Below, piece after piece: positions 20,128-32,217 of a stretch of 64,000 bases of DNA. Made by a program: the position numbers and the translations under genes. The stretch spans positions 105,086 to 169,085 of the forward strand of contig CAJXKF010000007.1 in assembly GCA_913055695.1 (NCBI GenBank), given 5' to 3'. The DNA comes from an uncultured Methylophaga sp. GTDB lineage: Bacteria; Pseudomonadota; Gammaproteobacteria; Nitrosococcales; Methylophagaceae. The notes beneath the pieces were generated by a model, which saw nothing but the letters and a program-made list of their open reading frames with translations, made no database searches and was not told where the DNA came from. Numbering within the stretch: the stretch's first letter is position 1; each line of letters begins with the position of its first letter.

Positions 20128-22926
20128 TTATAGCAGTACGTTTTTCGACTGACCGCCGCCGTAGCTATAGAACTGCATCGGTTCACCACCCGGGGTGACA
20201 TTGACCGCACAGTACTTGAACTCGGGGATTTTCGCCGCCGGGTCCAAAGCCGGGTTGGACAGTTTATTGACCGCCGCTTCGTAATAACAGAAAGCCATAA
20301 ACACGGCGCCGGTCGGTACGCCCATATCGGCACGGGCAATTGCCGAGACACTGCCACGGCGGGTAGACAGGGTAATCAGTTCGCCCGGATTGACGCCCAT
20401 TTCATCGAGCGTAATCGGATTCACTGTTGCTACCGCTTCCGGCTCCAGCGAGTCGAGCACGTTGGAACGACGGGTCATTGAACCGGTATGCCAGTGTTCC
20501 AGCATGCGACCGGTAATGAGCACGAACGGATAGTCTTCATCCGGTCTTTCATCCGGCGGCACAATATCAGCCGGGACAAACTTGCCACGACCACTCGGGG
20601 TCGGGAAGGCGCGGGTAAAGATCACCGGATCGCCCGGATCCCCCTCTTCCACACAGGGGTAAACCACACCATGCTCACGTTGCAGGCGATCCCAGGTAAT
20701 ACCGGCCATCGACGGCACCGCTTTGCGGATTTCAGCAAACACATCTGCCGGTCCGTCATAGTGCCAGTCGAGGCCCATACGGTTGGCAATTTGCTGGATG
20801 ATCCACAGATCCTGACGGGCATCACCCGGCGGGTCGATAGCCTGACGGCCCAGTTGTACCCAGCGGTCGGTATTCGTGAAAGTACCGGTCTTTTCCGGGA
20901 ACGCCGATGCCGGCAGAACCACATCAGCCAGGTAGGCGGTCTCGGTCAGGAACAGATCCTGTACCACCAGATGCTTAAGCTCTGAGAGTGCCTGACGGGC
21001 ATGATTGACATCCGGATCCGACATCGCCGGGTTTTCACCCATGATGTACATGCCATGCAGTTTACCGGCATGGATCGCATCCATGATCTCGACCACGGTC
21101 AGACCGGCTTTATCGCTGATTTCCCCCTGCCAGAGCTGCTGCATATTTTCACGCGCCGCCTTGTCTTCAACACGGAAATAATCCGGCAGACACATCGGAA
21201 TCAACCCCATGTCGGAGGCGCCCTGGACGTTATTCTGACCACGCAGCGGATGAAGGCCAGTGCCCGGACGACCGATCTGACCGGTCATCAAGGCCAGTGA
21301 AATCAGGCAGCGGGCGTTATCGGTACCATGCACATGCTGGGAAACTCCCATGCCCCAGAGGATCATAGAGGCGTTGGACTTGGCATAAAGCCGTGCCACT
21401 TCACGCAGGGTCTCTGCCGGAATACCGCAGACTGATTCCATCAGTTCCGGCGTATATTTTTCCAGATGCTTCTTCATTGCCTCGAAGCCTTCAGTTCGCT
21501 CAGCAATAAATGCGTCGTCGATGAGTCCTTCCTCAACGATGGTATGCATCATCGCGTTGAGCATAGGCACATCAGAGCCCGGTTTGAACTGCAGGTGATA
21601 GGTGGCTTCACGGCGCAATTCGGTACCGCGCGGATCCAGCAGGATCAGCTTGGTGCCATCGCGCACAGCATTTTTCATCCAGGTCGCGCCAACCGGGTGG
21701 TTGACGGTCGGATTAGCGCCGATAAGCACAATCACTTCGGCTTTCTCAACATCGGCGACGGGGTTGGACACAGCGCCGGAGCCCAGTGTCTCCAACAAAG
21801 CCACTACCGATGAGGCATGGCAAAGACGAGTGCAGTGATCGACATTGTTGGTTTTGAAGCCGACCCTAATCAGTTTCTGGAACAGATAAGCTTCTTCGTT
21901 ACTGCCCTTGGCACTACCGAAACCGGCCAGCGCCTGGGGACCGTCATTATCACGAATATCGACGAGACCCTGTGCGGCACGCTCCAGTGCTTCTTCCCAA
22001 CTCGCCTCACGGAAAACCTTGTCGATATCGTTGGGATCCATTTCAAAGTCAGGATACTTGGGCGCATCGTCGCGACGAATCAATGGCTTGGTAATCCGGT
22101 GGGGATGGTGCACATAATCGAAACCATAGCGGCCTTTAACACAAAGACGGCCATGGTTGGCAGGACCGTCGCGGCCTTCGACATGCAGGATTTTATTGTT
22201 CTTGATGTTGTAGGTGAGCTGACACCCGACACCGCAGTACGGGCAGACCGAATCGACTTTCTTATCCGGCTCAACCATCGCGACCTCACCCGCCGGCATC
22301 AGCGCGCCGGTCGGACAGGCCTGCACACACTCGCCACAGGCCACACAGGAGCTCTCTCCCATGGGATCATCCAGATCAAACACGATTTCGGTGTGGTGAC
22401 CGCGCATCGCCAGGCCAATGACATCATTATTCTGTTCGTCACGGCAAGCCCGGACACAGCGGGTACATTGAATGCAGGCATCCATATTGACCGCAATCGC
22501 CGGATGCGACAGGTCGGCCTGCGGATTTTCACGCGGCTTGAAGCGGGGTGTGCTGATCTCCAGCTTACCGGCCCAGTAATCGAGCTCGGAATGCAGAGTA
22601 TGTGGCTGCTCAGACACATCGGACTTGAGCAGTTCCAGCACCATTTTCTGTGACTTCAGTGCACGCTCGCTTTGTGACTGGACTTTCATGCCTTCCGACG
22701 GATAACGGCAACATGAAGGTGCCAGCACACGCTCGCCGTCGATTTCGACCATGCAGGCACGGCAGTTACCATCCTGCCCCTGGCCTTCGGAATAGCACAG
22801 GTGCGGGATTTCCACGCCATGACGCTGCGCCGCCAGCAGGATAGTCTCGCCTTCTTCGGCAAAGATCTTTTTGCCATTGAGATCAAAGGCAATCAGTTCG
22901 CTTTCAATTTCCGGGTTGATAGCCAT
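20128..22926 (-). CDS. fdhA: NAD-dependent formate dehydrogenase, alpha (catalytic) subunit
   Basis: A 932-residue molybdenum/tungsten-bis-pterin oxidoreductase. Domains in order: NuoG-like 2Fe-2S ferredoxin (CYSEGQGQDGNCRACMVEID), His/Cys and two-cluster 4Fe-4S ferredoxin modules (CIQCTRCVRACRDEQ; CVACGECVQACPTGAL), the 4Fe-4S plus catalytic core beginning CPYCGVGCQLTYN, and a C-terminal dinucleotide-binding domain. The metal ligand is a cysteine, not selenocysteine, in CTRLCHASSVVALLETLG. No export signal, so it is cytoplasmic. It overlaps the beta gene by one base; together they oxidise formate to CO2 and reduce NAD, the last step of methanol oxidation. The two-subunit layout resembles Fdh1 of Methylorubrum. 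Confidence 0.94.
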   Translation of the reverse strand: MAINPEIESELIAFDLNGKKIFAEEGETILLAAQRHGVEIPHLCYSEGQGQDGNCRACMVEIDGERVLAPSCCRYPSEGMKVQSQSERALKSQKMVLELLKSDVSEQPHTLHSELDYWAGKLEISTPRFKPRENPQADLSHPAIAVNMDACIQCTRCVRACRDEQNNDVIGLAMRGHHTEIVFDLDDPMGESSCVACGECVQACPTGALMPAGEVAMVEPDKKVDSVCPYCGVGCQLTYNIKNNKILHVEGRDGPANHGRLCVKGRYGFDYVHHPHRITKPLIRRDDAPKYPDFEMDPNDIDKVFREASWEEALERAAQGLVDIRDNDGPQALAGFGSAKGSNEEAYLFQKLIRVGFKTNNVDHCTRLCHASSVVALLETLGSGAVSNPVADVEKAEVIVLIGANPTVNHPVGATWMKNAVRDGTKLILLDPRGTELRREATYHLQFKPGSDVPMLNAMMHTIVEEGLIDDAFIAERTEGFEAMKKHLEKYTPELMESVCGIPAETLREVARLYAKSNASMILWGMGVSQHVHGTDNARCLISLALMTGQIGRPGTGLHPLRGQNNVQGASDMGLIPMCLPDYFRVEDKAARENMQQLWQGEISDKAGLTVVEIMDAIHAGKLHGMYIMGENPAMSDPDVNHARQALSELKHLVVQDLFLTETAYLADVVLPASAFPEKTGTFTNTDRWVQLGRQAIDPPGDARQDLWIIQQIANRMGLDWHYDGPADVFAEIRKAVPSMAGITWDRLQREHGVVYPCVEEGDPGDPVIFTRAFPTPSGRGKFVPADIVPPDERPDEDYPFVLITGRMLEHWHTGSMTRRSNVLDSLEPEAVATVNPITLDEMGVNPGELITLSTRRGSVSAIARADMGVPTGAVFMAFCYYEAAVNKLSNPALDPAAKIPEFKYCAVNVTPGGEPMQFYSYGGGQSKNVLL

Positions 22927-24623
22927 TATTTCAACTCCTCAGGGAAATACTTAATCACGCAGCGCAACGGATTGGGTGCTGCCTGGCCGAGTCCGCAAAT
23001 AGAGGCATCCACCATTACTTGTGACAACTCTTCCAGTAAGTCTTGATCCCACTGTTTCTGTTTCATTAAGGTCACAGCCTTTGCTGTGCCAACGCGGCAG
23101 GGCGTACACTGACCACAGGATTCATCTTCAAAGAATTTCATCGCATTGACTGCCAGGTCGCGTGCCTTGTCCTTGTCGGAAAAGACCACGACCGCAGCGG
23201 AACCGATGAAACAGCCATAGTCATTTAGAGTATCGAAGTCGAGCGGAATATCCCCCATTGAGGCGGGCAGAATGCCGCCAGAGGCTCCGCCCGGGAAATA
23301 ACCATAAAATTCGTGGCCTTGCTGCATACCGCCACAATACTCATCAATCAGCTCTCGCATGGTGATACCCGCCGGCGCCAGATGCACACCAGGTTTGTTA
23401 ACGCGGCCACTGACCGAAAATGAACGCAAACCCTTACGACCATGGCGACCGTGATCAGTCAGGCATTGCGGTCCTTTTTCCAGGATATCGCGTACCCAGT
23501 ACAGCGATTCCATATTGTGTTCCAGTGTCGGTCTGCCGAATAGCCCCACCTGGGCCACATACGGCGGGCGCAGACGTGGCATGCCGCGTTTGCCTTCAAT
23601 CGATTCGATCATCGCCGATTCTTCACCGCAGATGTAGGCACCGGCACCGCGGCGCAGATACAGCTTGGGCATATTGGCAACCGGTGGACTGGCCACCAGT
23701 TTAGCAATCTCAACTTCCATCATCTCGCGGATCGCCGCGTATTCGTCACGCAGGTAGATATAGATTTCATCAATACCCACGGCCCAGGCGGCAATCAGAC
23801 TGCCTTCCAGGAAGCAGTGGGGATCACGATCGAGGAAATATTTATCTTTAAAGGTGCCGGGTTCACCTTCGTCGATATTGACGGCCATCAGTTTCGGTGC
23901 CGGTTGATCGCGCACGATGCGCCATTTACGGCCGACCGGGAAACCGGCACCGCCGAGACCACGCAGACCGGAGTCATCCATGGTGTCGAGCACTTTTTCG
24001 ACATCATAATGACCTTCCATACAGAGGCGGTAGGTGTTGTAACCACCCTGCTCGACATATTGTTCAAAGCGAATCGGTTCGATGCCTTCCGGACGGGTGT
24101 GTCTGTTTTCAACCAGTTCGGAAACCCGGGCGGTATCGGCATTCTCTACCGGATGCATACCGACCACCGCAACCGGCGCTTTATCACAGCGGCCGACACA
24201 GGGAACGCGCTGCACACGAACATCACTGCCAAGGCCCTGTTCCAATGAGTCTATTAGTTCGTTTGCACCCAGCATTTCGCAGGTCATCGAATCACAAACA
24301 CGCACGGTCAGTGCCGGCGGTGGTGTCTGATCTTCTTTAATGACATCAAAATGATGATAAAAGGTGGCGACTTCGTAGACTTCGGCTCGCGACAGTTTCA
24401 TCTCATAGGCCAGCGCCACCAGATGGGCAGCCGAAATGTACCTGTAGTTGTCCTGAATTTTGTGCAAATGCTCAATAAGTAAATCTTTGCGGCGCGGTTC
24501 ATCGCCCAGTAATGCCTGGACTTCAGCCAGCGCTTTGGGGTCAACCTGTCTGCCTTTATTGACAGCCCGCGGCAATTTAAGCTCTTTGCCCAGCTTTTGA
24601 GCACTGATTTGCTGCCCACTCAT
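22926..24623 (-). CDS. fdhB: NAD-dependent formate dehydrogenase, beta subunit (fused NuoE-NuoF type)
   Basis: A 565-residue fusion. Residues about 20-170 are a NuoE-like thioredoxin-fold 2Fe-2S domain (AAHLVALAYEMKLSRAEVYEVATFYHHF; RVCDSMTCEMLGA; VQRVPCVGRCDKAPVAV). The rest is NuoF-like: GLRGLGGAGFPVGRKW for FMN, GEPGTFKDKYFLDRDPH, the NAD-site GAGAYICGEESAMIESIEGKRG and the 4Fe-4S motif ESCGQCTPCRVG. Other soluble formate dehydrogenases keep these as separate gamma and beta subunits; the fusion matches the Fdh1B type. It passes electrons from the alpha subunit to NAD. It is first in the operon, behind a 370-bp upstream region. Confidence 0.94.
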   Translation of the reverse strand: MSGQQISAQKLGKELKLPRAVNKGRQVDPKALAEVQALLGDEPRRKDLLIEHLHKIQDNYRYISAAHLVALAYEMKLSRAEVYEVATFYHHFDVIKEDQTPPPALTVRVCDSMTCEMLGANELIDSLEQGLGSDVRVQRVPCVGRCDKAPVAVVGMHPVENADTARVSELVENRHTRPEGIEPIRFEQYVEQGGYNTYRLCMEGHYDVEKVLDTMDDSGLRGLGGAGFPVGRKWRIVRDQPAPKLMAVNIDEGEPGTFKDKYFLDRDPHCFLEGSLIAAWAVGIDEIYIYLRDEYAAIREMMEVEIAKLVASPPVANMPKLYLRRGAGAYICGEESAMIESIEGKRGMPRLRPPYVAQVGLFGRPTLEHNMESLYWVRDILEKGPQCLTDHGRHGRKGLRSFSVSGRVNKPGVHLAPAGITMRELIDEYCGGMQQGHEFYGYFPGGASGGILPASMGDIPLDFDTLNDYGCFIGSAAVVVFSDKDKARDLAVNAMKFFEDESCGQCTPCRVGTAKAVTLMKQKQWDQDLLEELSQVMVDASICGLGQAAPNPLRCVIKYFPEELK

Positions 24624-24991: not shown

Positions 24992-26011
24992 TCAGTCGGA
25001 GCGGTCTGAGGACGAGGCATTTTTTTCACGGATCTCCTGTAACCAGAGATCGTGATGCTGCTCCGCCCAGGCGACATCAACACGGCCTGTGGTCATGCCT
25101 TCCAGTGCGCCTTCGGTTCCGATAGTGCCGATATAGATATGACCGAAAGAAAAGGCAATCAGGATGAGGGCGGTGGTCAAATGAATGACATGCGCCAGTT
25201 GGATCACCTGACGTTCCTGTCCGAAATTGGGGAAGTCCAGCACCAGTCCTGAGAAACACAGGGCAATACCGGCAGTTGCCAGTGCCCAGTACCAGACCTT
25301 TTCCCCGCCATTCATGCGCCCGGCAGAAGGATGTTTATCCCCTACCATGCCGCCGTAGGCCTTGAACCATTCGAGATCGACTTTGTTAAAGAAGTTATGC
25401 CTGAAAAACTTCACCAGGATCGCAAACAGGGCAATCATGAACACCGGTCCCAGGGCGTTATGCAAAAACTTGGCGCCAGTGGCATAAAGAGAAAAGCCGG
25501 GGTAGCCCATCAGCGGAATCAAAACCGCCCGACCGTAGAGAATGCTAAGCCCGGTGATCGTCAGTAGTATGAACAGAATAGCCGTCGTCCAGTGCAACCG
25601 CCGTTCGTTGAGTGTCCAGCGTTCTACCGTTTCACCTGTTCGCGGATGCGTCAGTTCAACTCTGCCGCGCATGACATAAAAGGCCAATATTGCCAGCAGC
25701 ACAAAGCCCATCAACCAGCTGCCGTATGTCGCCATCGGACCATTTCGCACCTGCCGCCAGGTTTCCCCGGAAGACTGAATCAACTCATTGGCTTCCTGAC
25801 CGGTGACCGCGGTATAGCCCTCGTTGCCACGCCGGACCTGACGCCAGGTATCAGAACGGGGATTCTCAACATCTGTTTGATACTGCTGATTTGGCTCATA
25901 ACCGGTAACCAGGTAGCCGCTCATCGGCAAAATGATGATGGCAAGCAGAATCACAATGCCGCTCCAGAGCATCATTTTTTTGCGTTTGTTCAGCGAGTCT
26001 GCCACAGCCAT
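24992..26011 (-). CDS. fdhC: Membrane-bound formate dehydrogenase, gamma (cytochrome b) subunit
   Basis: A 339-residue diheme cytochrome b of the FdnI/FdoI family that carries electrons from the periplasmic catalytic unit to quinone. After an N-terminal membrane segment (LWSGIVILLAIIILP) and a roughly 70-residue periplasmic stretch come four core helices; the heme-ligating histidines are likely in NERRLHWTTAILFI, LHNALGPVFM and LAHVIHLTTALILIAFSFGHIYIG. The short ending ITGLSILYG and GTEGALEGMTTGRVD are typical of the family. The N-terminal extension with its extra helix is longer than E. coli FdnI (217 residues). It is the last gene of the operon. Confidence 0.92.
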   Translation of the reverse strand: MAVADSLNKRKKMMLWSGIVILLAIIILPMSGYLVTGYEPNQQYQTDVENPRSDTWRQVRRGNEGYTAVTGQEANELIQSSGETWRQVRNGPMATYGSWLMGFVLLAILAFYVMRGRVELTHPRTGETVERWTLNERRLHWTTAILFILLTITGLSILYGRAVLIPLMGYPGFSLYATGAKFLHNALGPVFMIALFAILVKFFRHNFFNKVDLEWFKAYGGMVGDKHPSAGRMNGGEKVWYWALATAGIALCFSGLVLDFPNFGQERQVIQLAHVIHLTTALILIAFSFGHIYIGTIGTEGALEGMTTGRVDVAWAEQHHDLWLQEIREKNASSSDRSD

Positions 26012-26023
26012 TTATCGCCTCCG

Positions 26024-26203
26024 CTAGCGGTCGGTCTGAACTTGTTGAAAGCGTCTTGCCAGGATATCCGCCCGCGCTTCATACGATTTGACATGGCTAT
26101 CCGGCTTGCCTTTGTAAACACCGGCTTCATGCAAAGTCACGTCGGTGTCCTCGTAACAGCCGCTGACAGCAAACAATGCAATTAAAGGTAGGAGATATTT
26201 CAT
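26024..26203 (-). CDS. Small lipoprotein inside the formate dehydrogenase operon (59 aa)
   Basis: Absent from the ORF track because it is only 59 residues. On the minus strand the ATG overlaps the stop of the iron-sulfur subunit gene (ATGA), so translation is coupled, and its TAG lies 12 bp before the gamma gene. MKYLLPLIALFAVSGC is a textbook lipoprotein signal with Cys16 lipidated. The mature 44 residues are charged and contain EAGVYKGKPDSHVKSYEARAD. The codon pattern and tight packing between two structural genes argue for a real protein, perhaps an assembly or docking factor at the membrane. I recognise no named family. Confidence 0.8.
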   Translation of the reverse strand: MKYLLPLIALFAVSGCYEDTDVTLHEAGVYKGKPDSHVKSYEARADILARRFQQVQTDR

Positions 26204-26793
26204 AGCTTCACTTCGTATGCTGTTTCCCAGCCACCCCAGTTATCAGGGCGGCCACCACGACGGACGACCCGTTTGCGGAACAGATCGGCAACAATATCGC
26301 CATCGCCGGCCAGCAAAGCCTTTGTAGAGCACATTTCGGCACATAAAGGCAGCTTGCCTTCTGCCAGTCGGTTACGACCGTATTTATCCAGTTCCGCCTG
26401 GGAATTATCCTCTTCAGGGCCACCCGCACAGAATGTGCATTTATCCATTTTACCGCGGGCACCGAAGGCGCCTTCCTGTGGATATTGGGGTGCACCGAAG
26501 GGACAGGCATAAAAACAGTAACCGCAACCGATGCAGATATCCTTGTCATGAAGGACTACCCCTTCCGGGGTGGTATAGAAACAGTCTACCGGGCACACGG
26601 CCTGACAGGGGGCATCAGTACAGTGCATACAGGCAACAGAAATCGACTTTTCCTGCTTGAGACCATCATCAATGGTCACAACCCGGCGGCGGTTAATGCC
26701 CCAGGGTACCTCATGCTCGTTTTTACAGGCAGTGACACAGGCGTTGCACTCGATACAACGATCGGCATCACATAAAAACTTCATTCGAGCCAT
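26200..26793 (-). CDS. fdhB2: Formate dehydrogenase iron-sulfur (beta) subunit
   Basis: A 197-residue four-cluster ferredoxin subunit like FdnH/FdoH, relaying electrons from the catalytic subunit to cytochrome b. The cysteine groups run in the expected order: CIECNACVTACKNEHEVPWG, CMHCTDAPCQAVCPVDCF, CIGCGYCFYACPFGAPQ and the CTFCAG and C-terminal CAEMCSTKALLAGDG pairs. Unlike E. coli FdnH (294 residues) it has no C-terminal membrane helix, so it must be held by the gamma subunit, as in other short forms. It follows the alpha gene by 16 bp. The symbol is a working label. Confidence 0.93.
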   Translation of the reverse strand: MARMKFLCDADRCIECNACVTACKNEHEVPWGINRRRVVTIDDGLKQEKSISVACMHCTDAPCQAVCPVDCFYTTPEGVVLHDKDICIGCGYCFYACPFGAPQYPQEGAFGARGKMDKCTFCAGGPEEDNSQAELDKYGRNRLAEGKLPLCAEMCSTKALLAGDGDIVADLFRKRVVRRGGRPDNWGGWETAYEVKL

Positions 26794-26809: not shown

Positions 26810-29704
26810 TCAAGCTGCTCTGACCCGACACAGTGACACCTTGGTCTCCTGCATCATGGTCACGGAATCGTAGCCATAGGTGAAAACAATATTGCAGGAC
26901 TCGCCCAGCACATAGGGCGCAGCCCCTTCCGGATATTTATCCCGCAATACTTCGCCCTGGAAATGGCCGCCGAAGTGGAAAGGCATAAACACCGTGCCAC
27001 GCTCTACCCGTTCGGTGACAAAAGCCATGACTTTGATCGAACCGCCTTCGGGTCCGTCGACCCAGACCATATCACCGTGAATTACACCGGCATTGTTGGC
27101 ATCGGCAGGATGAATCTCGACAAACATGTCCTGCTGCAGTTCAGCCAGCCAGGGATTGGAACGGGTTTCCTCGCCGCCACCTTCGTATTCGACCAGACGT
27201 CCACTGGTCATAATCAGCGGAAACTCCTGGGTAAAGTCCTTGGCCTGGATCGAACCATAACGGGTCGGCAGACGGTAGAAGCTGCGGCGATCTTCATAGG
27301 TGGGATATTCATCAACCAAATCCCGACGGTTGGTATAAAGCGCTTCCCTATGTATCGGCACTGGATCCGGGAACTGCCAGACGATAGCCCGGGCTTTGGC
27401 ATTGCCATAGGGGGCACAACCATGTTTGATTGCCACACGTTGTATGCCGCCGGACAAATCGGTTTTCCAGTTTTTGCCTTCTGCCTCTTGTTGCTCTTCG
27501 GCGGTCAGTTCATGCCACCAGCCCAGTTCTTTGAGCATATCGGCGGTGAATTCGGGATAGCCGTCTTTAATATCAGAGCCGACTGTGTAGGAATCTTCAG
27601 CCAAGAGATTAACGCCATCACGCTCGATACCGAAACGAGCCCGGAAAGGCAGACCACCGTCTTTAACCGGCACCGAAGTATCATAAAGAATCGGCGTGCC
27701 TGGATGATTCATCTCGCCGGTTCCCCAGCAAGGCCATGGCAGACCGTAATATTCACCATCACAGGGGCCACCCTGGGCTCTGAGCGTAGTGGTATCGAAT
27801 GTATGCAGATTTTCAGACTGGCGTTTCAGTCGTTCCGGTGTCTGACCGGTATAGCCGACGGTCCACATGCCACGGTTGTACTCGCGGGTGATGTCTTCAA
27901 TCAGGGGCTCTTCACCATTGACCTGGATATGTTTGCAGAGCTTATCGGCATAGCCGAATTTTTTGGCAAACTTGTACATGATGGTGTGATCAGGGAGTGA
28001 CTCAAACAGTGGATCGATAATTTGATGACGCCACTGCACGGAACGATTGGAAGAAGTCACTGAACCGTATGTTTCAAACTGGGTCGATGCCGGCAGCAGA
28101 TAAACACCGTCAGTACGATCATGCATCACTGCGGAAACCGTCGGATAAGGGTCCACGACCACCAGCAGCTCCAATTTTTCCATTGCCGCTTTCATTTCCG
28201 GACCACGTGTCTGGCTGTTGGGTGCATGTCCCCACAGCACCATGGCACGGATAGTGTTTTTCTGATCGATGTTTTCCTTGTCTTCCAGCACCCCGTCTAT
28301 CCAGCGTGACACTGGAATACCGTTGGTGTACATCGGTGATTTACCGGCTTCGGTGGGGCCATCTTCGCCCATGCCGGCCTCCGGCTCGTAAACATGCTGA
28401 TCAAAGCGTTTTTTCAGCCATTCGTAATCGATGTCCCAGACCCGGGCCCAGTGTTTCCAGGCCCCTTCGGAAATACCGTAGTAGCCCGGTAAGGTGTGTG
28501 AAAGCACGCCAAAATCGGTCGCCCCCTGAACATTGTCATGGCCGCGGAAGATATTGGTGCCGCCACCGGCAACCCCCATATTGCCGAGCGCCAGCTGGAA
28601 AATGCAGTAGGCGCGGGTATTGTTGTTACCGATGGTATGCTGGGTGCCGCCCATGCACCAGACAAAGGTACCCGGACGGTGTTCAGCCATCGTTTTGGCT
28701 GCCTGATAGACATCTGCCTCTTTGGCACCGGTCACCCGTTCGACTTCGGCTGGCGTCCAGTGCGCCACTTCTTTGCGGATCTCATCCATGCCATAGACAC
28801 GCTGGCGAATGAATTCTTTGTCTTCCCAGCCGTTTTCGAAGATATGCCAGAGCATACCCCAGACAAACGGCACATCGGTGCCTGGACGAATCCGGATAAA
28901 CTGATCAGCATGCGCGGCAGTGCGGGTCATTCGTGGATCAACCACAATCAGTGGCGCACCACGTTCCTTGCCACGGAAAATATGCTGTAAGGAGACCGGA
29001 TGGGCCTCGGCCGGGTTGGCACCGATAATAAAAATGGCCTTGGCATTATGGATATCGTTGTAGGAGTTGGTCATCGCGCCGTAACCCCAGGTGTTGGCTA
29101 CACCGGCTACCGTGGTGGAGTGACAGATCCGGGCCTGGTTATCGACGTTATTGGTACCCCATAGCGAGGCAAATTTACGGAACAGGTAGGCCTGTTCGTT
29201 GGAATGTTTGGAACTGCCCAACCAGTAAACAGAGTCGGGGCCGGCATTCTCCCGAATCGCCAGCATCTGGTCACCGATTTCCTCAATGGCCTGATCCCAG
29301 CTGATCCGCTGCCATTTGCCGTTGACCTTTTTCATCGGATATTTGAGCCGTCTGTCGCCGTGGCCGTGTTCACGAACCGACGCGCCCTTGGCACAGTGTG
29401 CGCCAAGATTGAAAGGATGCTCGAAACTGGGTTCCTGTCCGGTCCAGACACCATTCTGAACTTCAGCAATAACACCGCAGCCGACACTGCAGTGGGTGCA
29501 GACACTGCGTTTGCGAACGATTTCGCCATCAGCATAGGTCAGCCGTTGTTCTTCCGCGGCTTCCGCTTTCTGCATCATCGCCGGTGGCAACATGGACATG
29601 AAAGCAGCGCCACCGGCGGCGATACCTGAGCCTTTGAGGAAAACTCGGCGGTTCACACCATTGGCATTGCTGGCCGGAACAGATTGTCGTTTAGTCAGTT
29701 TCAT
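26810..29704 (-). CDS. fdhA2: Periplasmic formate dehydrogenase, alpha (catalytic) subunit, Tat-exported
   Basis: A Mo/W-bis-pterin enzyme of about 964 residues that oxidises formate in the periplasm. A twin-arginine signal NRRVFLKGSGIAAGGAAF lies near residue 20. The 4Fe-4S motif is CTHCSVGCGVIAEVQNG, and the metal ligand is cysteine in QARICHSTTVAGVANTWGYG, where FdnG has selenocysteine. GVAGGGTNIFRGHDNVQGATD is the usual cofactor loop. I take the ATG at 29704 (MKLTKRQS) over the GTG three codons earlier. The preceding tiny Tat-signal gene and the following iron-sulfur, lipoprotein and cytochrome genes form one operon. The symbol is a working label. Confidence 0.94.
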   Translation of the reverse strand: MKLTKRQSVPASNANGVNRRVFLKGSGIAAGGAAFMSMLPPAMMQKAEAAEEQRLTYADGEIVRKRSVCTHCSVGCGVIAEVQNGVWTGQEPSFEHPFNLGAHCAKGASVREHGHGDRRLKYPMKKVNGKWQRISWDQAIEEIGDQMLAIRENAGPDSVYWLGSSKHSNEQAYLFRKFASLWGTNNVDNQARICHSTTVAGVANTWGYGAMTNSYNDIHNAKAIFIIGANPAEAHPVSLQHIFRGKERGAPLIVVDPRMTRTAAHADQFIRIRPGTDVPFVWGMLWHIFENGWEDKEFIRQRVYGMDEIRKEVAHWTPAEVERVTGAKEADVYQAAKTMAEHRPGTFVWCMGGTQHTIGNNNTRAYCIFQLALGNMGVAGGGTNIFRGHDNVQGATDFGVLSHTLPGYYGISEGAWKHWARVWDIDYEWLKKRFDQHVYEPEAGMGEDGPTEAGKSPMYTNGIPVSRWIDGVLEDKENIDQKNTIRAMVLWGHAPNSQTRGPEMKAAMEKLELLVVVDPYPTVSAVMHDRTDGVYLLPASTQFETYGSVTSSNRSVQWRHQIIDPLFESLPDHTIMYKFAKKFGYADKLCKHIQVNGEEPLIEDITREYNRGMWTVGYTGQTPERLKRQSENLHTFDTTTLRAQGGPCDGEYYGLPWPCWGTGEMNHPGTPILYDTSVPVKDGGLPFRARFGIERDGVNLLAEDSYTVGSDIKDGYPEFTADMLKELGWWHELTAEEQQEAEGKNWKTDLSGGIQRVAIKHGCAPYGNAKARAIVWQFPDPVPIHREALYTNRRDLVDEYPTYEDRRSFYRLPTRYGSIQAKDFTQEFPLIMTSGRLVEYEGGGEETRSNPWLAELQQDMFVEIHPADANNAGVIHGDMVWVDGPEGGSIKVMAFVTERVERGTVFMPFHFGGHFQGEVLRDKYPEGAAPYVLGESCNIVFTYGYDSVTMMQETKVSLCRVRAA

Positions 29705-29719
29705 GGCAGGCACTCAAGC

Positions 29720-29932
29720 TTAAAAATCAGCAAGGCGGTAATAGGTCTCAACATGCTCGGTATGTTGATAGCCTTTTTTAGGGGAATCGGGCTTGGTTTC
29801 TGTTTCAGGCGGCGAAGTTGTTGGCGCGGCCTGAACCATACCCGATGACGCAGCGAGGGCGGCACCGCCACCTACTGCCGATGTCAGCTTGACCAAAAAG
29901 TCCCTGCGTGAGCGACTGTTTTGCATGCTCAT
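29720..29932 (-). CDS. Formate-dehydrogenase-region Tat-signal protein (70 aa)
   Basis: A very short protein that is mostly signal peptide: SRRDFLVKLTSAVGGGAALAAS with the twin arginines, then a short mature tail ending GYQHTEHVETYYRLADF. This is the recurrent small protein found beside membrane formate dehydrogenases (the family annotated as formate dehydrogenase region TAT target). Its role is not established; escorting the cofactor-loaded subunit is one idea. I start at the ATG at 29932, just after GGAGG; a second ATG two codons on has better spacing and is an alternative. It ends 15 bp before the alpha gene. Confidence 0.85.
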   Translation of the reverse strand: MSMQNSRSRRDFLVKLTSAVGGGAALAASSGMVQAAPTTSPPETETKPDSPKKGYQHTEHVETYYRLADF

Positions 29933-30083: not shown

Positions 30084-30647
30084 CTATTTAATCGACTGCA
30101 GCTCGGACTGCAAAAAAACACTCGCAACATGGGCGAGCTGACGATAGAAAACAGCGCTGTCGGCTTTAGCCAAATCGGCGAAAAACTGATTGGCCCAGGG
30201 AGAAATGTGTTTTTTAAAAAATGTGGCAGCATCAATAACCGGCGTTCCCTGCGCAGTCAGGATGAGACGCATCACATCACATTCAGCCGCGATATGATCC
30301 TCAGGTTCTTTTTTGTCCTGTTGTCGCTCCAGCCCGAGTAAAGCCAGATCCTGGCGTAACGCTGCCAGCGGCTTCTCATTTAGAAAACCGGTCTGATAAT
30401 AAGAGCCATAAGGGATGACTTCCCCCTCGCTGAGGCCGATAAACAGATCATTGTATTCCTGCTCCAACTCATCCGCTTGCACAGCACCGGCAACCTGTTT
30501 CAGACCCTGCCAGGCACGGCCCATTTCCGAGTCCGGATCAGTAATGTCAATCCGGGCAATTTCATCCAGCAGATTCTGTGAAGGCGGTGCTGAAAGCAAT
30601 GTCGCCAATAGCGCGTAGTGCTGGGCCCGCCAAGCATCCTGTTCCAT
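30084..30647 (-). CDS. TorD/DmsD-family maturation chaperone for formate dehydrogenase
   Basis: A 187-residue all-helical chaperone. The family motif (E)PxDH is present as EPEDHIAAECDVMRLIL, and YNDLFIGLSEGEVIPYGSYY matches the conserved N-half region. TorD-type proteins hold a molybdoenzyme precursor, shield its Tat signal and aid cofactor loading. Its place in the cluster makes the periplasmic formate dehydrogenase alpha subunit the obvious client. It follows the ferredoxin gene by 22 bp, so DUF3305-DUF3306-ferredoxin-TorD are probably one accessory operon. Confidence 0.88.
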   Translation of the reverse strand: MEQDAWRAQHYALLATLLSAPPSQNLLDEIARIDITDPDSEMGRAWQGLKQVAGAVQADELEQEYNDLFIGLSEGEVIPYGSYYQTGFLNEKPLAALRQDLALLGLERQQDKKEPEDHIAAECDVMRLILTAQGTPVIDAATFFKKHISPWANQFFADLAKADSAVFYRQLAHVASVFLQSELQSIK

Positions 30648-30669: not shown

Positions 30670-32217
30670 CTAGTTTTTGAACATCGATTTAACCCGGCAG
30701 TCTTCGCACATTTTCAGCCTTTCCAGCGCCTGCCCCTGAAACATCGGGTGGTCAGACAATTTGCCGATAATGGTGTCGATCATTTTCTGGGTCGCAAACG
30801 GTTTGTGACAGCTGATGCAGTTGAATACCGGTTCTTCATGTAACAGACGTTTCTGGCGGGCCTGATTTCTGTCGAAAACATAGCGCGGTGATAAATCAAT
30901 CGCATCCTCGGGACAGGCAGTCTCGCATAGACCGCACTGCACGCAGAGATCCTCGATAAAATGCAGCTGCGGTTTATCGACGCCGTCTACCACCGCGCCG
31001 ACCGGACAGACGGACACGCAGGACATACACAAGGTACAGGCCTGTTTATCCACCAGAATTTCACCAAAAGCCGCATCCTCAGTCAGCGTCATCTGTTCTG
31101 GTTTTACAGCTGCCTGCTCATGCAGATGCGTGAGGGCCATGGTGGTCATACGCCGTTTGTCGTTGATACCGGCAAAGCGGGCAGGCTCAATCTTGCTGAC
31201 TTGCGGAGATACTGACAGGGCTGACTGCAGCGTTTCAATATCCCGGCTGTGAAGATACTCAATGCGGCGATCCGATAAGCCCAGTTCCGCCAGCATCGCA
31301 TTACTCTCACCGATACTGCGCTGCAGTTCCTGCCAGTCATGATCGTCGTGGCTGCCGGCGTCCCAAACGACAATTCTGGATACGCCGTAAGCTACGGCTG
31401 AGAGCCAGAAAGGCTGACCGAGGGCAGCGATTTCTTCAATTGAAAACGGCAACACATCATCAGCAAACGGGTAATCATAGGCATCAAGCTGCTGTTGTCC
31501 CAGATTTTCATCATGAATCAGTAACTGCGGCGGCTTAGACTGATAGTGCTCATATTGCTGCAGCATCTGCCGTAGCCGGTTAATGCTGACATCCAGGCTC
31601 GGCAGGCTGTAGCTGATAGCACCGGAAGGACAGACCACAGTACAACTGCCACAGCCCTGACATAAATTCGGATTCACATTGATTAAATCACCGCCGCTGC
31701 TGATCGCTTCCGCGGGACAGGCTTCAATACAGTTAGTGCAGCCTTTGACGCCACGACGACTGTGCGCACAGATATCGGCTCTGTAATCAAAATAACGCGG
31801 CTTATCAAACTCCCCCACCAGTTCGGGTAACTGTTGCAATGCTTCGGCCAGCGCCTGCGGATCATCGCCGGGCGCGAAATAGCCCAGCGGCGGCACTTTG
31901 CTTTTTATCCGGGGGGTATCGCTTAAATCCAGTACCAGATCGACCGTCAGTTCATGTTCACCGAAACGCGCTTGAAACTGACCCAGCCAGCCATTCAGTT
32001 CGCTGAGAGGCTGACGGATCACGGTGACTGTTTCTACTGTTTCTATGTCTGCCTGATCGCTGGAATAAACATACAATTGCAGCGAAGTCAGCCGTGGTAT
32101 GACCCGACTCAGGATTGCGGCCGGGGCAATTAGCAGACAGCGACCACTGGATTCGAAGCTGATTTGCTCTTCAGGCTCAATTGGAATCTGCCCGGCTTCT
32201 ACCACCGCTTTAAGCAA
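30670..32217 (-). CDS. Polyferredoxin-like protein of the formate dehydrogenase cluster
   Basis: A 515-residue protein with several 4Fe-4S sites: CAHSRRGVKGCTNCIEACP, CQGCGSCTVVCPSGAISY around residues 165-205, then CTLCMSCVSVCPVGAVVDG and CVQCGLCETACPEDAIDL around 395-445, and a C-terminal CISCHKPF plus CEDCR pair. The regions between are not ferredoxin-like (FDDLs, strands and helices without cysteine). The start is TTG with AGAGGA upstream, 8 bp inside the preceding gene. The family recurs next to membrane formate dehydrogenases with DUF3305 and DUF3306, presumably for electron transfer or maturation; that role is unproven. Confidence 0.87.
   Translation of the reverse strand: MLKAVVEAGQIPIEPEEQISFESSGRCLLIAPAAILSRVIPRLTSLQLYVYSSDQADIETVETVTVIRQPLSELNGWLGQFQARFGEHELTVDLVLDLSDTPRIKSKVPPLGYFAPGDDPQALAEALQQLPELVGEFDKPRYFDYRADICAHSRRGVKGCTNCIEACPAEAISSGGDLINVNPNLCQGCGSCTVVCPSGAISYSLPSLDVSINRLRQMLQQYEHYQSKPPQLLIHDENLGQQQLDAYDYPFADDVLPFSIEEIAALGQPFWLSAVAYGVSRIVVWDAGSHDDHDWQELQRSIGESNAMLAELGLSDRRIEYLHSRDIETLQSALSVSPQVSKIEPARFAGINDKRRMTTMALTHLHEQAAVKPEQMTLTEDAAFGEILVDKQACTLCMSCVSVCPVGAVVDGVDKPQLHFIEDLCVQCGLCETACPEDAIDLSPRYVFDRNQARQKRLLHEEPVFNCISCHKPFATQKMIDTIIGKLSDHPMFQGQALERLKMCEDCRVKSMFKN

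What the first reader, a model, noticed from the sequence alone, without database searches (positions are those of the whole stretch)
26024..26203. Unlisted 59-residue lipoprotein wedged between formate dehydrogenase subunit genes
It is not in the ORF track, has a textbook lipobox, a 4-bp ATGA overlap with the iron-sulfur subunit and a 12-bp gap to the cytochrome subunit. Such placement suggests a small structural or assembly partner of the complex that automated annotation may miss.
Basis: seen in the sequence. Interest (0 to 1): 0.6.

Follow-up and report, generated by a model that had tools for sequence, protein, structure and literature searches.

The report
Unnamed lipoprotein of formate dehydrogenase operons
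A tiny membrane-anchored protein, never named in the databases searched here, sits between two subunit genes of a formate-oxidising enzyme in Methylophaga and many other bacteria, travels with that enzyme and is probably a small extra part of it.

Summary
It encodes MKYLLPLIALFAVSG-C16..VQTDR, overlaps fdhB by ATGA and ends 12 bp before fdhC. The frame is real: 20 of 20 Methylophagaceae genomes with FDH3-type formate dehydrogenase carry it in the same place, and 0 of 15 without FDH3 do. No copy has an internal stop, and dN/dS against the nearest relative is about 0.07. It has no Pfam, NCBIfam or PDB relatives. The family (lip1, 57 distinct sequences) reaches other Gammaproteobacteria, some Syntrophaceae and other 'Deltaproteobacteria'. 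Every trustworthy hit whose neighbourhood could be read lies between fdhB and fdhC. On an FDH3 tree lip1 marks one clade (59 of 61 rows, 2 lacking it). Many distant members have a second lipoprotein (lip2) in the same gap; Burkholderiales have a third kind (lip3). Predicted shape: signal helix, extended tether, one helix, conserved C-terminal tail. Best reading: a small lipid-anchored subunit or stabiliser docking at the periplasmic face, probably on the gamma-subunit loop. The FDH link is strong; docking site and role are inferred; no experiment was found.

The parts
26024..26203 (-). lip1: 59-aa predicted lipoprotein gene, TAG stop
   Evidence: ORF and translation; 20 orthologues at the same operon position; dN/dS about 0.07 vs nearest
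26159..26203 (-). signal peptide, residues 1-15, ending in lipobox V-S-G before Cys16
   Evidence: sequence; helix 4-14 in AF2 model; lipobox kept across the family
26027..26158 (-). mature 44-residue part starting at the lipidation Cys16
   Evidence: Cys16 invariant in 20 close and in 51 diverse members
26039..26083 (-). residues 41-55, the only predicted helix of the mature part
   Evidence: AF2 with 51-row alignment, block pLDDT about 88, pTM 0.36
26027..26041 (-). C-terminal VQTDR tail
   Evidence: ends 37 of 57 distinct lip1 sequences exactly; R59 invariant in the 51-member alignment
26200..26203 (-). ATGA: lip1 start overlapping the fdhB stop
   Evidence: sequence
26200..26793 (-). fdhB, FDH3 beta (4Fe-4S) subunit
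   Evidence: NF038355 339.8 bits, cut-off 240
24992..26011 (-). fdhC, cytochrome b gamma subunit with N-terminal TM and periplasmic loop
   Evidence: TIGR01583 171.8 bits, cut-off 115.85; E. coli FdnI aligns only from residue 131
25724..25909 (-). gamma loop, residues 35-96 (NPRxxxWRxVR...WRxxRNG), proposed docking site; R60 25832-25834, R86 25754-25756, N90 25742-25744
   Evidence: R60, R86, N90 are the only residues conserved in at least 95% of lip1-carrying gammas that are changed in both lip-less members of the clade; inference
26810..29713 (-). fdhA, molybdopterin alpha subunit with twin-arginine signal
   Evidence: Pfam PF00384; closest solved chain 9vap_A, S. oneidensis FdhA
29720..29914 (-). 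small TAT-signal peptide gene of the FDH region (start codon further upstream uncertain)
   Evidence: TIGR02811 50.3 bits, cut-off 48.45
30084..30647 (-). TorD-like chaperone of the operon
   Evidence: PF02613 108.8 bits, cut-off 22.2; conserved in relatives

Best explanation
The gene encodes a small lipoprotein that is a dedicated partner, most likely a minor subunit or stabiliser, of the membrane-bound, periplasm-facing FDH3-type formate dehydrogenase FdhABC. Shown: a real, selected gene, strictly tied to FDH3 and to the beta-gamma gene junction. Predicted from sequence: Sec export, cleavage at the lipobox, and lipidation of Cys16. Inferred: the lipid holds it at the membrane; an extended tether (about residues 17-40, with the conserved VTxHxxGxYKGxxD motif) reaches up; and the helix 41-55 with the VQTDR tail docks on the periplasmic loop of the gamma subunit where FdhAB sits. 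It would hold FdhAB onto the quinone-reducing gamma subunit, or order the otherwise flexible gamma loop. Confidence: about 0.95 that it is a real gene, about 0.9 that it is an FDH partner, about 0.5 for the specific structural/docking role.
For: In Methylophagaceae lip1 is found in 20/20 FDH3-positive and 0/15 FDH3-negative genomes. Every trustworthy homologue whose flanks could be read lies between fdhB and fdhC. On the FdhB+FdhC tree it marks one clade of 61 rows with a single two-row loss, and that clade includes Thermodesulfobacteriota and Myxococcota-labelled MAGs, as expected if gene and enzyme move together. It was not found elsewhere in 26 genomes whose FDH3 lacks it or could not be resolved (one E 8e-4 hit covers only the signal peptide). 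Purifying selection is strong. In the two lip-less members of the clade, the only near-invariant residues changed in both, over gamma, beta and the alpha region available, are three gamma-loop residues, R60, R86 and N90 (3 of 3 in the loop, P about 0.006, one event, post hoc). AF2 gives no globular fold, only tether plus helix.
Against: No physical or genetic evidence exists. Many FDH3 enzymes lack any such gene (50 of 115 tree rows), and the solved S. oneidensis FdhAB was described as a two-subunit enzyme, so it is not essential to the chemistry. Lip-less FDH3 outside the clade often keep the same gamma-loop arginines, which weakens the docking inference. The residue after Cys is mostly Tyr, never Asp in lip1; by the E. 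coli +2 rule (own knowledge) that predicts outer-membrane sorting unless the complex retains it. The fused lip-gamma model was uninformative: the artificial linker became a continuous helix and the gamma loop stayed at pLDDT about 50-58.
Confidence: 0.5

Rival explanations
1. It is a transient, lipid-anchored assembly factor of FDH3 (for example helping FdhAB meet FdhC after Tat export) and not a subunit of the finished enzyme.
For: Operon also carries assembly-type genes: a TorD-like chaperone and the TIGR02811 TAT peptide. Small size and patchy presence fit. The same co-occurrence data support it.
Against: Its fixed place between the beta and gamma genes, away from the chaperone genes at the front of the operon, is more typical of a stoichiometric part (inference). 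No sequence relation to a known assembly factor.
Confidence: 0.27
2. It is an outer-membrane or free periplasmic lipoprotein co-expressed with FDH3 for another envelope job (formate handling, redox sensing, cofactor insertion).
For: Position +2 after Cys is not Asp, which would default to Lol export by the E. coli rule (own knowledge).
Against: A 44-residue mature peptide with one helix has little room for a separate function. No conserved Cys besides the lipidated one. H25 is not invariant in the 51-member set, so it is not a fixed haem or metal ligand. Strict linkage to the beta-gamma junction.
Confidence: 0.12
3. A translational-coupling leader or untranslated filler whose peptide does not matter.
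For: 4-bp overlap with fdhB and short gap to fdhC in the close relatives.
Against: dN/dS about 0.07; residues C16, Y30, G32, D35, R51 and R59 invariant over 51 diverse members. In distant members the gaps to fdhC are long, so tight coupling is not kept.
Confidence: 0.03

Closest known systems
FDH3-type formate dehydrogenase (NF038355 fdh3B; S. oneidensis FdhAB, PDB 9VAP)
   Same: Host operon with alpha, beta, gamma, TAT peptide and TorD-like chaperone; 9VAP chains A and B are the closest solved relatives of FdhA and FdhB.
   Different: The structure is described as a two-subunit FdhAB. Search of PDB chains with the lip1 profile found no relative.
E. coli FdnGHI formate dehydrogenase-N (1KQF)
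   Same: Three-subunit membrane FDH; gamma homologous over residues 131-333.
   Different: Its gamma lacks the N-terminal extension with the periplasmic loop that Methylophaga FdhC has.
lip2 and lip3, the other lipoproteins found in the same gap
   Same: Same operon slot, lipobox and short mature part. Profile comparison lip1-lip2 97%, lip1-lip3 92%; lip2 mostly ends like lip1 in ...R....Q.DR.
   Different: lip2 has a PWV...ER.RS motif and occurs in addition to lip1; lip3 (Burkholderiales) has GWKxGDxxSWExQ...R..GQNEYxR. Part of the profile similarity is the signal peptide, so homology is likely for lip2 and uncertain for lip3.
Small accessory subunits of respiratory enzymes (such as CydX) and other small lipoproteins (named from memory)
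   Same: Tiny operon-encoded partner of a respiratory complex.
   Different: Lipid-anchored on the periplasmic side instead of a single TM helix; no sequence relation found in Pfam or NCBIfam.

Membership tests
Bacterial lipoprotein (signal peptidase II substrate) | Basic n-region, hydrophobic h-region, lipobox [LVI][ASTVI][GAS]C near the N terminus | tested here: met
   K2, then LLPLIALFAVSG-C16; Cys invariant and lipobox kept across 57 lip1 members
Bacterial lipoprotein (signal peptidase II substrate) | Actual lipidation and membrane location | not testable with these tools
   needs globomycin or labelled-lipid test, fractionation
FDH3-type formate dehydrogenase operon | beta over NF038355 cut-off and gamma over TIGR01583 cut-off, adjacent | tested here: met
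   339.8 vs 240 bits; 171.8 vs 115.85 bits
FDH3-type formate dehydrogenase operon | alpha over an NCBIfam equivalog cut-off | tested here: not met
   best is TIGR01591 at 478.6 bits, cut-off 666.25; that model describes other FDH alphas, and the closest solved chain is S. oneidensis FdhA, E = 0
Small dedicated subunit of a respiratory complex | Conserved co-occurrence and operon position with the complex | tested here: met
   20/20 vs 0/15 in Methylophagaceae; one clade of the FDH3 tree
Small dedicated subunit of a respiratory complex | Co-purification or structure with the complex | not testable with these tools
   no data; fused lip-gamma AF2 model uninformative
Named small-lipoprotein families (YgdI/YgdR, EexN, TrbK, LptM) | Score above curated cut-off | tested here: not met
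   the window protein matches none of these at E 1; other lip members at most 13-17 bits against cut-offs 23-42, over the signal peptide region

The most novel reading that the evidence does not exclude
FDH3 enzymes carry an unrecognised module of one or two small periplasmic lipoproteins (lip1, lip2, or lip3 in Burkholderiales), used as lipid-anchored clamps that hold the exported catalytic FdhAB on a flexible periplasmic loop of the cytochrome subunit; lineages without them bear other gamma loops.
Probability: 0.35. Interest if true: 0.6.

Novelty: new variant of a known kind. Interest (0 to 1): 0.45.

Why it matters
Membrane-bound formate dehydrogenases matter for methylotrophy, syntrophy and CO2-reduction technology, and the FDH3 gamma subunit has no solved relative except E. 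coli FdnI. A conserved extra gene in the operon tells people who express or purify these enzymes that a part may be missing from three-gene constructs. It gives a named, testable target for how exported FdhAB is kept on the quinone-reducing subunit. The two naturally lip-less lineages inside the clade offer a built-in comparison.

Tried and rejected
Pfam, NCBIfam and PDB searches for lip1, lip2 and lip3: nothing above cut-off (lip2 was not searched against PDB). Plasmid collection with lip1: no credible match. Papers on FDH plus small lipoprotein: none on this gene found; the M. thiooxydans proteome paper lists FDH subunits but no lipoprotein in its main text, and supplements were not readable. 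AF2 of lip1 with gamma as one chain, obtained by reading the natural lip1 stop and the TAA before fdhC as Gln (table 6): the short linker became one long helix, so nothing can be said on docking. Rfam and promoter/terminator scans of the operon: no RNA element, nothing above chance for promoters. Haem or metal ligand role rejected because H25 is not invariant and there is no second Cys. Low-scoring hits without FDH genes nearby (L076, L077, L179, L180, L186) discarded.

Full report
What is there. The ORF is on the minus strand, 26024-26203: MKYLLPLIALFAVSGCYEDTDVTLHEAGVYKGKPDSHVKSYEARADILARRFQQVQTDR. It begins inside the fdhB stop (ATGA, 26200-26203) and its TAG is followed by 12 bp and the fdhC ATG. 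The operon on that strand reads polyferredoxin-like 30670-32217, TorD-like 30084-30647, TIGR02811 TAT peptide about 29720-29914, fdhA 26810-29713, fdhB 26200-26793, this gene, fdhC 24992-26011. A second, NAD-type formate dehydrogenase pair follows at 20128-24623 (the NAD-type label is from resemblance, not from a family scan).

Is it a gene? A search of 58 relatives found it in 20 of 35 genomes of the same family, and the family model of FDH3 beta is present in exactly the same 20. In all 20, tblastn places it between fdhB and fdhC. All frames are intact and all end in VQTDR. Nei-Gojobori dN/dS against the nearest relative is 0.08/1.13, and the median of finite pairs is 0.15. Only 3 of 174 comparable ORFs in the window pass a crude signal-plus-lipobox filter, this one included.

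How far does it go? A profile scan of one genome per GTDB species found 37 loci (two short seed patterns, so a lower bound). A sample of 369 Gammaproteobacteria gave 21 hits, two of them without FDH genes nearby. Every other hit with readable flanks lies at the fdhB-fdhC junction; one (L074) is cut by a contig end and lies just before fdhC, and in another (L066) no fdhC was recognised after it. The set includes Syntrophaceae and other MAGs labelled Deltaproteobacteria, and one further genome out of 198 in that phylum sample, again with FDH genes on both sides. I count 57 distinct lip1 sequences, one of them a lip1-like sequence outside the Gammaproteobacteria (L133) of uncertain membership. 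Invariant in a 51-member alignment: M1, C16, Y30, G32, D35, R51, R59.

Two further small lipoproteins use the same slot. Many lip1 loci outside Methylophagaceae have a second one, lip2 (consensus C..I..PWV...L..ER.RS.E....LR.RA...Q.DR), after lip1. Burkholderiales-like genomes have lip3 in place of lip1; in annotated Variovorax and Diaphorobacter plasmids it lies exactly between fdh3B and the gamma gene and is called 'hypothetical protein'. hhalign gives 97% for lip1-lip2 and 92% for lip1-lip3. Because signal peptides contribute, I regard common origin as likely for lip2 and open for lip3.

Evolution with the enzyme. On a tree of FdhB+FdhC from 115 loci (quick search; some loci are the same genome fetched twice), lip1 is one clade of 61 rows with two lip-less rows that group together (L103, L156), and lip3 is another clade. 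Counts cannot tell gain from loss, but the nesting suggests one loss. A whole-genome search of 26 genomes with lip-less or unresolved FDH3 found no credible lip1 elsewhere. In the two lip-less rows I asked which residues, conserved in at least 95% of the clade, changed in both. The answer is gamma R60, R86 and N90, and none in beta or in the part of alpha held; sister pairs used as controls gave 0-3 changes in gamma, mostly outside the loop. Ten of 51 near-invariant gamma positions lie in the loop, so 3 of 3 has P about 0.006. This is one event, looked at afterwards, and lip-less FDH3 outside the clade often keep these residues, so it is a hint only.

Structure. AF2 with 51 sequences: helix 4-14 (signal), extended 15-40, helix 41-55, pTM 0.36. 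That is a tethered docking peptide, not a domain. A read-through lip-gamma fusion (an artificial single chain used only for computation) gave pTM 0.72 overall, a gamma loop at pLDDT about 50-58, and an artefactual continuous helix across the linker; it says nothing on contact. The closest solved complex is S. oneidensis FdhAB (9VAP), described as two subunits.

Mechanism. Shown: gene, selection, strict linkage to FDH3. Predicted: export and lipidation. Inferred: anchoring at the membrane and docking of helix plus VQTDR on the gamma loop next to FdhAB, stabilising the catalytic dimer on the quinone-reducing subunit. The main competing view is a transient assembly factor. The +2 Tyr, by the E. 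coli sorting rule (own knowledge), would favour the outer membrane, and this is the clearest point against the preferred view.

Novelty. No family, structure or paper on this gene was found in the libraries searched; subscription papers and supplements were not searchable. The kind of thing, a very small accessory protein of a respiratory enzyme, is known; the family and its lipoprotein form in FDH3 appear new.

Noticed in passing
L187:2941-3192 (Variovorax paradoxus VAI-C plasmid CP063167.1, 2308583-2308834): PLSDB lists this 83-aa lip3 gene as 'CAE-1 beta-lactamase' (RGI, 100% identity) although it is a small lipoprotein in an FDH operon and real CAE-1 has 302 residues (PMC9984417): an apparent false resistance call.
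   Followed up: partly
loci L045, L050, L051, L059-L061, L064, L065, L067, L069, L071, L072, L085, between fdhB and fdhC: A second short lipoprotein (lip2, PWV...ER.RS motif) follows lip1 in many distant FDH3 operons and is absent from Methylophagaceae.
   Followed up: partly
20128-24623 (minus): Two further genes resembling an NAD-linked soluble formate dehydrogenase pair lie directly downstream of the FDH3 operon; most sampled Methylophaga loci keep this arrangement.
   Followed up: no
30670-32217 (minus): A 515-aa protein with several 4Fe-4S motifs heads the FDH3 operon and is conserved with it, including in Syntrophaceae, without a fitting NCBIfam equivalog.
   Followed up: no
25592-26185 (plus): A 197-codon GTG-started open frame runs antisense over fdhC and lip1; it looks like a by-product of the coding strand.
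   Followed up: no
L096 (G048): FDH3 beta with a normal score followed by a gap of about 0.8-0.9 kb and a very divergent gamma (31% identity), without lip1.
   Followed up: no
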